Virus record (IMG/VR): IMGVR_UViG_3300009610_000041
Location: 1-45,408 of that record
DNA from: a virus
Direction: 5' to 3' (one strand)
DNA length: 45,408 nt
The position numbers and the translations under genes are program-made. The notes beneath the pieces were generated by a model that made no database searches, was not told the origin of the DNA, and saw only the letters and a program-made list of their open reading frames with translations. Shown here piece by piece: positions 32,527 to 45,149 of this stretch; the stretch's first letter is position 1; every line of letters begins with the position of its first letter.

Positions 32527-33548
32527 AGAACCTCCGCTAGAATCCCCTCCACCGCATGCTCCCAAGTCTGATTCTCTCGAATCCATCGAGCCGCTTTCTG
32601 TCCAAAAGCGAATGCAGTCTCAGGGCTATAATACGCCCACTTCATCACTTGCGCAAGAGCAGGAATATCGACCATGGAGTGGTTGCCATAGCTGGGTCCT
32701 GACGCTTCCTGAACGCTGCCAGGAACGACCAGTGCCCACTGCTCAGTGAAGCCATCATCCATGCCGCTATACTTCTGGGTCACTACAGGAATGCCCATAC
32801 AAGCCGCCTCCCTGTGAGGCATGCCCCACCCCTCATAGCGGGAGGGTAGCAGTACACAATCAGCCTGAGCATAGACAGAGGGCATGTCCTTCGCTATCTC
32901 TGTTTGGTAGACAATTCGCTTATCGGCCCCATTAGCCTCGCTCATGTTGTCAGTTAAGATAGCTTCAGTCCCTCTTGGAATCGTCTTCACGATGAGACGC
33001 ACGTCCTGGTTCCCGGTAGTCTTTCCACCAAAGGCTTGATAGAACGCTTCCCAGACCTCGTTGAATCCTTTGCGAAAGCCCCTGTCTCCAAAGACCAAAA
33101 AGGTGTAGGGGTGACTCTTGCCTTCCCAGTGCTTCTTCAAGACAGGGAACTCATCAGGGTCTGTGCCAGCAGCCACCACGCTAATGGGAACGGTCACTCC
33201 CCCCTGCATGTAGCCCTCTTTCACGTTCTCGCAGGGGACAATCACCTTCTCGTAGCCAAGGGAGTTGATGATATCAGCGTACTTCTGTTCCAAGAGAGAG
33301 GTCTCCATCATGCTGTAGAGGACACTCCTCCCTGGTATGGGCATCAGGTCAAAGGCGGGGAGACAGGTGATGGTCAAGTCGTTCCAGTCAATCCCCATCT
33401 GCTTCTGCATCCAAAGGGGCTTGTTGATATCGTCCCTGGTAATGGCAGTAACAGAGACCCCTAACTTCTGCAGGGTCTGAACAAAGCGCACACTCATCCT
33501 GCCATAACTGTAGACTTCACCGTAGTGTCCCAGCCACTGAATGTGCAT
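32436..33548 (-). CDS. GT4-family glycosyltransferase
   Basis: 370 residues of GT-B fold. The C-terminal Rossmann domain holds the GT4 marks: FGDRGFRKGFNEVWEAF (about 153-169, the strand and helix near the donor site), ADCVLLPSRYEGWGMPHREA with the E-x7-E motif (Glu239, Glu247) and GIPVVT. The N-terminal domain (HIQWLGHYGEVYSYGRMS) would bind the acceptor. GT4 enzymes move sugars from NDP-sugars to other sugars or proteins with retention. Its place inside the head-tail operon (TAATG overlap upstream) suggests that virion proteins or a host surface glycan are the target. No membrane segment. Confidence 0.85.
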   Translation of the reverse strand: MHIQWLGHYGEVYSYGRMSVRFVQTLQKLGVSVTAITRDDINKPLWMQKQMGIDWNDLTITCLPAFDLMPIPGRSVLYSMMETSLLEQKYADIINSLGYEKVIVPCENVKEGYMQGGVTVPISVVAAGTDPDEFPVLKKHWEGKSHPYTFLVFGDRGFRKGFNEVWEAFYQAFGGKTTGNQDVRLIVKTIPRGTEAILTDNMSEANGADKRIVYQTEIAKDMPSVYAQADCVLLPSRYEGWGMPHREAACMGIPVVTQKYSGMDDGFTEQWALVVPGSVQEASGPSYGNHSMVDIPALAQVMKWAYYSPETAFAFGQKAARWIRENQTWEHAVEGILAEVLWQKRARLNTTYPMVNSFSKTLELSEQPLR

Positions 33549-34009
33549 CAGGGTTTCCTAATCGAATTGATTCGCCAGTCTTGGCGAAGGGTGGTTGAGT
33601 TGGCAACAGGTCCCACATCAGGAAAGAAACCCGTCTCAAAGTCCCATTGCAGAGGGTAGGCTTGAGCAATCGTCTCGCCTTGCAGCACCACATAGCTCCT
33701 CTGTTTGGCTGCTTCAATCGCAGCATGGCCCCGGAACTCGTAGAAGAAAATCTGCACAATCTGCTGTGTGGAGACCATCTTCTCTTCCAGGTCCCAAAAC
33801 TGTTCATCAGGCACCAGACCCCTCTGTATCACCCAAGCACAGGGGAGGAGTCTTCCCTCAGAGTCAAAGGCTTGCGCTGTAGGGGAGCCATCCCCTCTGC
33901 GAATCCCCTCCACACCCACCTCTTGGTAGGTGTAGATACCACCGGGGAGAATCCCCAAAAGGGTTGTGTCAGCAAGCAGTAGCTCTGCAACCTGTTCTTC
34001 CCTAGTCAC
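33548..34009 (-). CDS. Probable tail terminator, 153 aa
   Basis: Position between head-tail connector genes and the tail tube, size and mixed alpha/beta content (REEQVAELLLADTTLLGILPGGIY; IVQIFFYEFRGHAAIEAAKQR) fit the tail terminator family of siphoviruses, which caps the tail tube. It is coupled at both ends. No signature motif was found, so the call leans on synteny. Confidence 0.55.
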   Translation of the reverse strand: MTREEQVAELLLADTTLLGILPGGIYTYQEVGVEGIRRGDGSPTAQAFDSEGRLLPCAWVIQRGLVPDEQFWDLEEKMVSTQQIVQIFFYEFRGHAAIEAAKQRSYVVLQGETIAQAYPLQWDFETGFFPDVGPVANSTTLRQDWRINSIRKP

Positions 34010-38222: not shown

Positions 38223-38247
38223 GTTAAAATTACCTCATTTCAAAGTA

Positions 38248-38301
38248 CCCAGGCAGTGACTGGAATCACTCCTGGGATTAGACACAGGAAAGGAAGTTCC
38301 T
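38248..38301 (+). promoter_or_regulatory. Two-hairpin leader of HNH gene 38302
   Basis: Hairpin 1: CCCAGG (38248-38253), bulged C, AGTGA, loop CTGGAA, TCACT, CCTGGG (38271-38276); 11 bp in all. Linker ATTAGACAC. Hairpin 2: AGGAA (38286-38290), loop AGGAAG, TTCCT (38297-38301), ending at the ATG at 38302, with the SD in the loop. On the - strand, the same hairpin 1 lies in the leader of the protease gene. Confidence 0.5.
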
Positions 38302-38817
38302 ATGTGCCCCAAGCATATCACACAACCTCGCCCAACCCTCATAGACCGTGTAGGTCAACGTTTCGGAAGACTCGTTGTAACACAACTCGACAAGCCTCAA
38401 AAGGGTCTCACCTACTGGATTTGCCAGTGTGACTGCGGGAACACGACAAGTGTTCGAGTCGATAGTTTGCGCACTGGCTACACCCAATCCTGCGGGTGTT
38501 TGCAGAGGGAGGCTGCAAAAGCCAATAAGGTGCATGGCATGTGGCAAGCCCCCATCTACAAGAGATACTACGCCATGATTCAACGTTGCAAGGATTCCAG
38601 GCAACCTGGCTATAAAAACTATGGGGGGAGAGGTATTAGGGTTTGCGAAGAGTGGATTCACTCTTTTCAAGAATTCTACAAACACGTTTCTTCCTTACCC
38701 AACTTTGGTGTTAGTGGCTATTCACTAGACAGAATTGACAATGATGGAAACTATGAGCCAGGTAATGTTCGCTGGGCCACAAGAATGGAACAAAAGGAAA
38801 ACATGAGAAAGAAATAG
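38302..38817 (+). CDS. HNH homing endonuclease-like protein, in antisense orientation to the late genes
   Basis: 171 residues. It has a zinc-ribbon-like N-terminal part (RFGRLVVTQLDK, CQCDCGNTTS, SCGCL) and a C-terminal part SLDRIDNDGNYEPGNVRWAT, the GxSxDRIDNDGxYxPxNxRWAT motif of phage HNH homing enzymes, with NYGGRGIRVCEEW between. It is on the + strand although all flanking genes are on the - strand. It ends flush against the two-helix membrane gene (38818), convergent with it. This orientation and the gene-boundary insertion fit a selfish homing gene. Confidence 0.88.
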   Translation: MCPKHITQPRPTLIDRVGQRFGRLVVTQLDKPQKGLTYWICQCDCGNTTSVRVDSLRTGYTQSCGCLQREAAKANKVHGMWQAPIYKRYYAMIQRCKDSRQPGYKNYGGRGIRVCEEWIHSFQEFYKHVSSLPNFGVSGYSLDRIDNDGNYEPGNVRWATRMEQKENMRKK

Positions 38818-42505: not shown

Positions 42506-44079
42506 TACCAGCCCCAACCCTTAGTCGATTCCATCAAAATCACTCCCCCCGCTCCAGAAGATATCATCTGTGCCCGTCCTGCCTGTGCCAAAGCGAAGGA
42601 GTCTGCTCTGTCATCGTTGAGACCCTCTGGGGCACGAAGGCTTGCGCCTTCGATGCTCACCAGTTGGTTAAAGGTGGCGAAATTGTGCAGCACCTTGACA
42701 CCCTCATCAGACTTCTGCCTAAAGAACTCAGCCGTTACCGTGTAGAGAATCGCCTTGCCCAAAGTGCTGGATAGCCACCCAGCTTTCTTTCTCTTCCTCT
42801 TGGCCCTTTGCGCCTTGCCCGTCTTGTGGGCGTCTGCATCATGACCGGGGAGGAGACGCACCCTTCTGCCGTGTTCTTCAAGCCACTGGATGACAGCATG
42901 ACCGTGATTGTTTCGCTCTACCATCGTAGGACAGAGGTTGTAGTACCCACTAACTTGTGTGATGTAAGATGCGAAAATAGCAGGTTCGTACTTGCCAGAT
43001 AGAGTGGCTACCTCTTCCCCCGTTAAAAACTCTACCACGGTCAGGCTGCTGTCATCAGAAGTAGGATTCCCTTCAGCAGGGTCTGCTCCTAGCACATAGC
43101 GTACACCAGGTTGGGGTAGTTTGTAAATAGTGAAGTTTGGTAGAGCGGGTCCCTGACTGGTTCTGAGGGGTTTTAGCTCCTCAAAACAGGTCTCTATCCA
43201 GATGGGAGGGATTCTTTTGTCCAGGGTTCTGGCTGATAGTGCCTCCGTGTCCGTTGCTGGATACTGCTCGTAGAGGTCATCCAGACTGCTTGTGCGACTC
43301 TGAATGTCCCTCTTCTGCCTCTCATACCACTCCTGGTCCCTCTCAGGGTGTGTACTCCAAGGCAGGAATATGGGCATCCAGCCGTTCTCTCCCGCTTTGG
43401 CACCCCTGTAGATGTTCTTAAACTCAGACTCTGGTGTGGACTTGTCCACCCTACTGAGCAGAATCATCTTACCGCCATTGTCGATGGTGGGTTTCACAGA
43501 GCGCAGCAGCTTGTTGAGGTCTGGTGTCAGGTCTGCTTCATCCACGATAGCCAAGGTGGAGACGTAGCCATCCCCTGCTGAGGTGGGGAAGGCACGAATG
43601 ACTGAGCCGTTTGATAAGGCCCACTCCTTGCCGTTGTCCACTGTGGTCATGTGCCCCACCCGCATCCACTCAGGTAGCTGCATGAACATGCCCCGCAGTC
43701 TTTCGTTTCCCAGCATGTAAATCGCTTCCGGCTCCCTTCTGGAAAAGATAGAGACGGAAGCGATGGGGCGAAAGAGTGCTTGCCAAAGGGCGTAGGAGAG
43801 GGATATCCATGAGATGCCAAGCTGCCTTGCCTTGAGAATCACCGTGAGTTGCTGTTGGTCTATGATTTGAACGAGCCGCTCCTGCTTCTTCCACAGCTTG
43901 AAAGGAATCCAGTCCTTGGAGACGGAGTCATAGATTTTACAGAACTCGTTGATGAAGTAGACCGGGGATGCAAAGCACTTGCCTAGCTCCTCTGCCCGGT
44001 ACTTATCAATTTGTACAGGGTCCCAGGCTCTAAACTTCCCTGCTTGCATGGACCTCGATTTCCAAGTACTCATCTTCAT
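42505..44079 (-). CDS. Terminase large subunit
   Basis: 524 residues. ATPase: a Walker A-like KARQLGIS (83-90), Walker B LAIVDEAD (176-183) and coupling motif. Nuclease (RNase H fold): GADPAEG (Asp333), MVERNNHG (Glu388) and DDRADSFALA (Asp489-493), which cuts concatemers. Packs DNA into the prohead through the portal. Candidate starts are 44079, 44073 (better spaced to GGAAG) and 44049. It overlaps the end of the small-subunit gene. Confidence 0.93.
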   Translation of the reverse strand: MKMSTWKSRSMQAGKFRAWDPVQIDKYRAEELGKCFASPVYFINEFCKIYDSVSKDWIPFKLWKKQERLVQIIDQQQLTVILKARQLGISWISLSYALWQALFRPIASVSIFSRREPEAIYMLGNERLRGMFMQLPEWMRVGHMTTVDNGKEWALSNGSVIRAFPTSAGDGYVSTLAIVDEADLTPDLNKLLRSVKPTIDNGGKMILLSRVDKSTPESEFKNIYRGAKAGENGWMPIFLPWSTHPERDQEWYERQKRDIQSRTSSLDDLYEQYPATDTEALSARTLDKRIPPIWIETCFEELKPLRTSQGPALPNFTIYKLPQPGVRYVLGADPAEGNPTSDDSSLTVVEFLTGEEVATLSGKYEPAIFASYITQVSGYYNLCPTMVERNNHGHAVIQWLEEHGRRVRLLPGHDADAHKTGKAQRAKRKRKKAGWLSSTLGKAILYTVTAEFFRQKSDEGVKVLHNFATFNQLVSIEGASLRAPEGLNDDRADSFALAQAGRAQMISSGAGGVILMESTKGWGW

Positions 44080-44536
44080 CTTCCATGGTTAGGAGCTTGG
44101 GGGGAGGCTGTGCCTCTGCCCCTCGTCTCATCGCTTCGATTAGGGAGGCTGCGTTCTTGGCAGCGTAGGGTCCTAGCTCATGCTCCACAGTGCTTTTCTC
44201 TGTGTAGCCTCTGTTCTTGCCAAGGGTCTTCAGGACGAAGATGATAGCGGAAGGGTTACCGCTCTTGACCAGTCTCTTCAACTCGGACTCGGTTGTATCA
44301 AGAAACTCGTCAATAATCTCCTGCCTGATTTTTTGCAGATGGGGACTGTTGAGAACCCTGATATTAATGCTGGACTGGTGCATTCCCAAGAAGTCTGCCA
44401 CATGGCTCATGTTACCATCAAAGCGGCGAAGAGCTATCTCTATGTCGTTGTTGGTGATGCCAGTGGGGGTCTTCTTGCCCTTCTTCTTCTTTTCCTCGAA
44501 GTATTTGACCCTGGCAGCAATTGCCTCTGGACTCAT
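44030..44536 (-). CDS. Terminase small subunit
   Basis: 168 residues if started at ATG 44536. A Lys-rich stretch (EEKKKKGKKTP) leads to a helix-turn-helix-like part (NDIEIALRRFDGNMSHVADFLGMHQSSINIRV), which should bind the packaging site, and a helical oligomerisation part. It precedes the large subunit and overlaps it by about 50 nt. The start is uncertain: no clear ribosome site lies before 44536, and a TTG-initiated form from 44635 is possible. Confidence 0.75.
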   Translation of the reverse strand: MSPEAIAARVKYFEEKKKKGKKTPTGITNNDIEIALRRFDGNMSHVADFLGMHQSSINIRVLNSPHLQKIRQEIIDEFLDTTESELKRLVKSGNPSAIIFVLKTLGKNRGYTEKSTVEHELGPYAAKNAASLIEAMRRGAEAQPPPKLLTMEDEDEYLEIEVHASREV

Positions 44537-44598
44537 GTTCGTATTGACAGCCCATCCTTTCTCACTTACACTACCTATGTAGCATCTGCCATAAAGAT

Positions 44599-44651
44599 TC
44601 CTGGCAACGTTGTGAGCGTCCCAGGATTGACACAAGAAAGGTTGATTTCTT
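44599..44651 (+). promoter_or_regulatory. Two-hairpin leader of HNH gene 44652
   Basis: Hairpin 1: TCCTGG (44599-44604) with CCAGGA (44621-44626). Linker TTGACAC. Hairpin 2: AAGAAA (44634-44639), loop GGTTGA, TTTCTT (44646-44651), ending directly at the ATG. The plan, the linker (ATT(A)GACAC) and the 53-54 nt distance from stem 1 to the ATG match the leader at 38248-38301. The G:C pair in stem 2 of that leader is an A:T pair here. Confidence 0.5.
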
Positions 44652-45149
44652 ATGTATCCTCATGATACCACTCGCCGTAAATACTCCACAATTGCAGACT
44701 GTTTTTGGACACATTGCCTTAAAGGAAACCCAGATGAGTGCTGGAGTTGGAAAGCCGCCATTCATAAAGGTGGCTATGGACAACTAACATACAGCAAAAG
44801 AAGTCAACTGGCCCATAGAGTCTCCTGGCAAATCCATAATGGGCCAATCCCAAGAGGATTGTTCGTACTGCACAGGTGCGACAATCCAATTTGCACGAAC
44901 CCCAACCACCTTTTCTTAGGTACTCAAGCCGATAACATGGCCGATATGCACAGAAAAGGTCGTGATAGGCAAGGAGTTCTTCGTGGCGAACTCAACTCCA
45001 AATCAAAATTAACAGAAGAACAAGTCGTCGCCATACGACAAGAATATACCAAGGGGAAGCGTGTTAAGGACCTGATGAGAGAGTACAATCTCTCTAAATC
45101 TGCCATCGAACACGTTGTGGCTAGAAGAAGCTGGAGCCACGTCCCCTAA
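44652..45149 (+). CDS. HNH homing endonuclease-like protein with HTH C terminus
   Basis: 165 residues. HNH core: GLFVLHRCDNPICTNPNHLF and LGTQADNMADMHRKGR, the HNH_3-type motif of phage homing endonucleases. The C-terminal part (SKLTEEQVVAIRQEY, LMREYNLSKSAIEHVV) is a helix-turn-helix/NUMOD-like DNA-binding segment. It is on the + strand in front of the divergent terminase small subunit gene and ends in a convergent 4-nt overlap with the gene at 45146. Placement at a gene boundary next to terminase is typical for homing genes. Confidence 0.88.
   Translation: MYPHDTTRRKYSTIADCFWTHCLKGNPDECWSWKAAIHKGGYGQLTYSKRSQLAHRVSWQIHNGPIPRGLFVLHRCDNPICTNPNHLFLGTQADNMADMHRKGRDRQGVLRGELNSKSKLTEEQVVAIRQEYTKGKRVKDLMREYNLSKSAIEHVVARRSWSHVP

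What the first reader, a model, noticed from the sequence alone, without database searches (positions are those of the whole stretch)
38248..38301. Two HNH genes share a covarying two-hairpin leader that ends at the start codon
The leaders of the HNH genes at 38302 and 44652 show the same plan although the proteins differ: an outer CCWGG stem (CCCAGG/CCTGGG here; TCCTGG/CCAGGA at 44599-44626), linker ATT(A)GACAC, then a short stem ending at the ATG with the SD in the loop (AGGAA-AGGAAG-TTCCT here; AAGAAA-GGTTGA-TTTCTT at 44634-44651). Distance from stem 1 to ATG is 54 and 53 nt. Stem 2 shows a G:C to A:T exchange that keeps pairing. Shared sequence plus compensatory change suggests a conserved RNA element tied to these endonuclease genes, perhaps a translational switch or part of the mobile unit.
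Basis: partly seen in the sequence, partly recalled or inferred. Interest (0 to 1): 0.75.

Follow-up and report, generated by a model that had tools for sequence, protein, structure and literature searches.

The report
Mobile two-hairpin RNA leader of nuclease genes
Two phage DNA-cutting genes start with the same folded RNA leader, and that leader turns out to be an undescribed RNA family that travels with such genes between phages and also occurs alone as a small RNA in mobile elements of bacteria.

Summary
Both HNH leaders in the window fold into P1 (a 6-bp stem, a bulged C and an inner stem), a linker, and P2 with the Shine-Dalgarno (SD) sequence in its loop. P2 also pairs linker CA with the UG of the start codon. 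Covariance models built from window and viral leaders found 17 copies before HNH-type genes in other viral contigs, then copies in cultured Gordonia phages. On 26 sequences, 14 of 18 pairs show changes on both sides, and 95% of cells are paired (33-41% when slid). No Rfam family matches. In Gordonia phage Vivi2 the leader lies inside a 606-bp insert that phage Fitzgerald lacks. In Keitabear it is 100% identical while the HNH ORF is only 58% identical. The same core without an ORF, followed by a terminator-like third hairpin, occurs in Chloroflexota genomes, often beside tRNA genes. In genomes it also precedes cas1, repA and ardC genes. Likely role: a transferable promoter/leader that gates translation of mobile-element genes. 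Structure and mobility are shown by comparison. Translational gating and its trans-acting factor are inferred; predicted start-codon occlusion is no stronger than in other genes.

The parts
38225..38230 (+). putative extended -10 (TG-T-TAAAAT) upstream of the HNH1 leader
   Evidence: consensus match only; most other copies have TATAAT or TATACT at a similar place
38248..38276 (+). P1 hairpin of the HNH1 leader: CCCAGG / CCTGGG, bulged C, inner AGTGA / TCACT
   Evidence: sequence; fold; covariation
38277..38281 (+). linker ATTA-G before P2 (consensus MTT-G)
   Evidence: sequence, alignment A5
38282..38305 (+). P2 hairpin with SD in 5' arm and loop; base pairs ACA (38282-38284) with TGT (38303-38305), i.e. 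the UG of the start codon
   Evidence: fold; covariation
38302..38817 (+). HNH1 gene, 171 aa, phrog_374-type HNH endonuclease
   Evidence: PHROG E 2.6e-61; no Pfam match
38311..38321 (+). codons 4-7 (AAGCATATCAC) corresponding to the AGTATANC box that follows P2 in the stand-alone RNA
   Evidence: comparison
44544..44572 (+). putative sigma-70 promoter TTGACA-17-TACACT upstream of the HNH2 leader
   Evidence: consensus scan, 10 of 12 matches
44599..44626 (+). P1 hairpin of the HNH2 leader: TCCTGG / CCAGGA, inner ACG / CGT
   Evidence: sequence; fold; covariation
44630..44655 (+). P2 hairpin: AAGAAA / TTTCTT with base ACA (44630-44632) / TGT (44653-44655); SD in loop
   Evidence: fold; covariation
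44652..45149 (+). HNH2 gene, 165 aa, HNH_3 (PF13392)
   Evidence: Pfam E 9.8e-14

Best explanation
The leader is a mobile, promoter-proximal structured RNA of about 75 nt. It consists of a short 5' tail, P1 with a bulged C, a linker (MTT-GRCA), P2 with the SD in its loop and the UG of the start codon paired at its base, then an RNA box (AGTATANC) that lies inside codons 4-7. It moves together with HNH homing-type endonuclease genes, and unrelated HNH ORFs sit behind it. Most likely it gates translation initiation of nuclease genes whose expression must be limited: P1 is the recognition part, P2 presents the SD while holding the start codon, and a trans-acting factor of the phage, element or host stabilises or opens P2. 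Shown by comparison: the fold, its covariation, the sharing between families, and the mobility. Inferred: transcription, translational gating, and the factor.
For: Covariation: 8/18 pairs on 8 leaders, 13/18 on 12 sequences and 14/18 on 26 carry double-sided changes; 95-98% of cells are paired, against 27-47% when partners are slid. The start-codon pair changes A-U to C-G in copies that need no AUG, and linker R covaries with the base after AUG. Models found leaders that were not used to build them, all before HNH genes: L039 twice and L051, further copies in G010 and G011, Gordonia phage Vivi2 gp38. ORFs behind it have HNH, HNH_3, HNH_3+AP2 and NUMOD4+HNH_3 architectures, or phrog_374 type without a Pfam match. 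Mobility: the 606-bp Vivi2 insert absent from Fitzgerald contains the leader; leader 100% identical with the ORF at 58% and flanks at 93-98% in Keitabear. Controls: 0/185 Gammaproteobacteria genomes; HNH1 and HNH2 relatives in other viruses mostly lack it.
Against: Computed start-codon accessibility is not lower than for other window ORFs (0.41 against 0.47, p = 0.16) and the SD region is not hidden, so P2 alone is a weak lock. The stand-alone form has no start codon, so the RNA has a role beyond translation. No expression data. The seed alignment was registered by hand with N padding, and later alignments are fitted to the model, which favours the proposed pairs.
Confidence: 0.55

Rival explanations
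1. The RNA acts on transcription rather than translation: a promoter-proximal, put/nut-like element that changes RNA polymerase so that mobile-element genes are read through, or an attenuator whose full form ends in the third hairpin.
For: It sits just downstream of a promoter-like -10 in most copies, heads several kinds of mobile-element genes, and the stand-alone form ends in a terminator-like hairpin.
Against: P2 is fixed to the start codon and its loop carries the SD in coding copies, which a purely transcriptional element would not need.
Confidence: 0.2
2. The leader is the 5' part of a small-RNA gene of integrative elements that HNH ORFs have repeatedly been captured by. Its conserved function is that of the small RNA (binding a shared factor or acting in trans), and HNH expression is a by-product.
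For: Stand-alone copies with promoter, P1, P2, box and terminator in Chloroflexota genomes, several next to tRNA genes and integrase or primase genes; L359 has a complete small RNA followed by an HNH ORF; the box recurs in HNH codons 4-7.
Against: SD and start codon are fitted into P2 in the coding copies, which suggests the structure has a role there. Direction of descent is not resolved.
Confidence: 0.2
3. The conserved leader is mainly a recombination handle: shared DNA at the 5' edge that lets HNH ORFs be exchanged, with pairing only a relic.
For: Leader identical and ORF swapped in Keitabear and Geodirt; L326 and L328 share a leader before different ORFs.
Against: A DNA handle needs sequence identity, not compensatory change; the stems covary widely while pairing stays at 95%.
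Confidence: 0.04
4. Coincidence: an ordinary SD plus chance inverted repeats in two leaders.
For: With two sequences the folding z-scores are modest and the string is near chance at 2 mismatches.
Against: Model hits on sequences not used for building, and 14/18 double-changed pairs.
Confidence: 0.01

Closest known systems
Translational hairpins of T4-type homing endonuclease genes (I-TevI, I-TevII, I-TevIII, segB; mobE of Aeh1; seg43 of phage 25) (PMC2988022)
   Same: An RNA hairpin at the ribosome-binding site of a phage homing endonuclease gene, thought to restrain its translation.
   Different: As described there they are individual hairpins of single genes that sequester the RBS (seg43's lies just upstream of it). 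Here one covarying two-hairpin RNA is shared by several HNH families, the SD lies in a loop, the start codon is in the stem, and a stand-alone RNA form exists.
Start-Associated Sequences (SAS/ESAS) of Cluster K mycobacteriophages (PMC3203893)
   Same: A repeated element next to start codons of genes of different families, with the SD in the middle of GGG...CCC, and upstream inverted repeats in about half.
   Different: The SAS sequence is nearly invariant and its authors found little support for hairpin pairing of the ESAS. The model finds nothing convincing in TM4 or Adephagia, and the SAS consensus occurs in the window no more than by chance.
RNA-phage coat-protein operator hairpin (MS2 type; from general knowledge)
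   Same: A hairpin with the SD in the upper part and the AUG at the base of the 3' arm, closed by a bound protein.
   Different: No homology; the binding protein here is unknown and there is a second conserved hairpin.
HEARO / omega RNA of IscB (from general knowledge)
   Same: A structured RNA upstream of a gene with an HNH domain.
   Different: No Rfam match at any stage; these are small free-standing HNH proteins, and no guide-like part was seen.

Membership tests
T4-type homing-endonuclease RBS hairpin | hairpin at the translation start of a phage homing-type endonuclease gene | tested here: met
T4-type homing-endonuclease RBS hairpin | RBS or start codon made inaccessible by the structure | tested here: inconclusive
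   UG of AUG is paired in most, but mean accessibility equals background
T4-type homing-endonuclease RBS hairpin | translation shown to be reduced by the hairpin | not testable with these tools
   needs reporter assays
SAS/ESAS of Cluster K mycobacteriophages | 13-bp consensus GGGATAGGAGCCC next to starts | tested here: not met
   one off-target match with 2 mismatches, chance level
SAS/ESAS of Cluster K mycobacteriophages | Cluster K genomes should match the model if it is the same family | tested here: not met
   TM4 none; Adephagia E 0.18, partial
Rfam families, including HEARO and group I introns | match to a covariance model | tested here: not met
   only tRNA hits and weak, sub-threshold chance matches
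HNH homing endonuclease mobile unit | insert present or absent at an otherwise intact site in close relatives | tested here: met
   Vivi2 against Fitzgerald. For HNH1 the L181 homologue of the 37077-38222 gene directly abuts its upstream gene, with no HNH
HNH homing endonuclease mobile unit | cleavage of the insert-free site by the encoded enzyme | not testable with these tools
   needs a cleavage assay

The most novel reading that the evidence does not exclude
The coding leader and the stand-alone small RNA are two forms of one RNA recognised by the same factor, so that satellites and phages sharing a host influence each other's nuclease expression through a common RNA module, and HNH ORFs spread by capturing this module.
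Probability: 0.25. Interest if true: 0.9.

Novelty: new variant of a known kind. Interest (0 to 1): 0.77.

Why it matters
Phage homing endonucleases must avoid harming their own genome, and how free-standing ones are controlled is known in only a few T4-like cases. A single structured leader shared by several HNH architectures, carried inside the mobile insert and found in cultured Gordonia phages, makes that control testable. The stand-alone form in integrative elements points to an undescribed RNA family with a function of its own.

Tried and rejected
Chance or generic SD: rejected by covariation and by model hits on new loci. Known RNA family: five Rfam searches, no real match. The patterns GGATT(A)GACACARGAAAGG and CACARGAAAG..TTYYTATG returned mostly unrelated DNA; the second recovered the L034 leader, already seen. 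blastn of leaders against phages and plasmids gave only chance matches. sigma-70 promoter inside the linker (TTGACA in HNH2): the other copies do not keep it. CsrA-type GGA loop: not conserved (loops GGTAAA, GGTTGA, AGAGAAC). Strong thermodynamic occlusion of the start codon: not supported. L176 (model hit, no HNH ORF) is left unexplained. Paper searches found no description of this RNA.

Full report
Observation. Folding of both gives the two hairpins plus three further pairs at the base of P2, where linker ACA pairs with UGU, i.e. the UG of the start codon and the next base. HNH1 is a phrog_374-type HNH protein and HNH2 an HNH_3 protein. Both genes lie on the + strand among - strand genes. 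On two sequences the case is weak: folding z-scores are modest and the shared string is near chance at two mismatches.

Finding relatives. HNH homologues at 30-50% identity mostly lack the leader, but one HNH_3 homologue (L034) has GCCTGG...CCAGGC, linker TTGGCA and AAGAA...TTCTT-ATG. Patterns built on P1 and the linker then found copies in L175 (two), L194, L200, L205, L326 and L328, all before HNH-type ORFs; L328's ORF is frameshifted. ORFs behind the leader have HNH (PF01844), HNH_3, HNH_3+AP2 and, in Gordonia phages, NUMOD4+HNH_3 architectures, or are phrog_374 type with no Pfam match.

Covariation. On eight leaders, registered by hand with N padding, 8 of 18 pairs change on both sides and none on one side only; 98.5% of cells pair, against at most 47% when partners are slid. 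A model from these (R1) found copies not used to build it, at L039 (two, E 1e-6 and 2e-4) and L051 (E 0.0016), each ending at the start codon of an HNH gene. Adding them and the second L175 copy gives 13 of 18. With genomic copies (26 sequences) it is 14 of 18, 116 double-changed cells against 35 in shuffles, 95.4% paired. The linker base R follows the base after AUG (A with U, G with C), and the A-U pair at the start codon becomes C-G in copies without an ORF. Later alignments are fitted to the model, so the exact percentages lean towards the structure.

Whole viral records. Model R2 on 12 viral records gave 19 hits in 11 of them at E<=0.01; 17 precede HNH-type ORFs, one of them frameshifted. 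One (in G008) is followed by a short ORF and a terminator-like hairpin, and one (G013/L176) by no evident gene. Some contigs hold several copies, each with its own gene: four in G011, three in G010. Most copies have an extended or plain -10 sequence 3-20 nt upstream of the model start, i.e. within about 30 nt of P1.

Stand-alone form. In whole genomes of the class of G001 (a MAG labelled Anaerolineales) R3 hits 32 of 396, and 15 of 301 in its phylum. In 31 loci examined, two (L356, L359) have an HNH ORF next to the RNA; most of the others have no ORF in P2 but a box AGTATAGCACA and a third hairpin, often with a T-rich tail. Many sit near tRNA genes and near integrase, primase or terminase-like ORFs, as at the end of integrative elements; these gene names are from reading the translations and were not profile-tested. 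L359 has the full RNA and then an HNH_3 ORF. The box matches codons 4-7 of the HNH genes (CAGTATAYC), where codon 5 in nearly all copies reads NAT, so the conserved N-terminal peptide is probably an RNA constraint. Other coding copies in bacterial genomes precede cas1, repA, ardC and HTH genes. Controls: 0 of 185 genomes in the Gammaproteobacteria set, 12 of 198 in the Actinomycetes set, 1 of 199 in the Planctomycetota set.

Mobility in cultured phages. Gordonia phage Vivi2, picked for another HNH gene, has a hit (E 2.8e-6) directly before its annotated HNH gp38, which runs against its neighbours. Gordonia phage Fitzgerald lacks a 606-bp stretch (Vivi2 33244-33849) that holds the HNH gene, the leader and about 45 nt upstream. 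Keitabear and Geodirt carry the same leader (100%) at the same site with an HNH ORF only 58% identical in DNA, while flanks are 93-99% identical. Asapag gp99, a classical HNH protein, has the leader at 89%. In the window, the homologue of the gene beside HNH1 directly abuts its neighbour in the related contig L181, with no HNH.

Function. The fixed position of SD and start codon in P2 argues for control of translation initiation. But start-codon accessibility is 0.41 against 0.47 for other window ORFs (p = 0.16) and the SD region is not less accessible. P2 alone is thus a weak lock, and a bound factor is assumed. A transcriptional role remains open because the element is promoter-proximal and has a terminator-ended form.

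Known relatives. T4-type endonuclease genes have RBS hairpins (PMC2988022), and Cluster K mycobacteriophages have SAS/ESAS elements near starts (PMC3203893). This element works in a similar place but is in neither set by sequence, and Rfam has no match.

Limits. E-values are rough (short calibration). The window phage's host is unknown; its terminase is only about 28% identical to known phages. Nothing here shows transcription or translation.

Noticed in passing
L420 (genome G625 contig 343): A Cas1 gene (PF01867, E 1.6e-38) is preceded by this leader, with the start codon at the P2 base; its further surroundings were not examined.
   Followed up: partly
L404 (G086 contig 78, 40000-48000): Two tRNA-Cys genes about 4.3 kb apart flank the stretch with the stand-alone RNA, like the ends of a small integrative element.
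   Followed up: no
L351 / L176 (G013): A good model hit (31 bits) in a 101-kb viral contig with no HNH or other clear ORF behind it.
   Followed up: partly
window 44030-44651: HNH2 lies just upstream of a probable terminase small subunit gene on the other strand; a TTG start for that gene at 44635 would overlap the leader.
   Followed up: no
stand-alone copies in G031, G027, G271, G074, G198, G389: Many stand-alone copies lie within a few hundred bases of a contig end, as repeats that break assemblies do.
   Followed up: no
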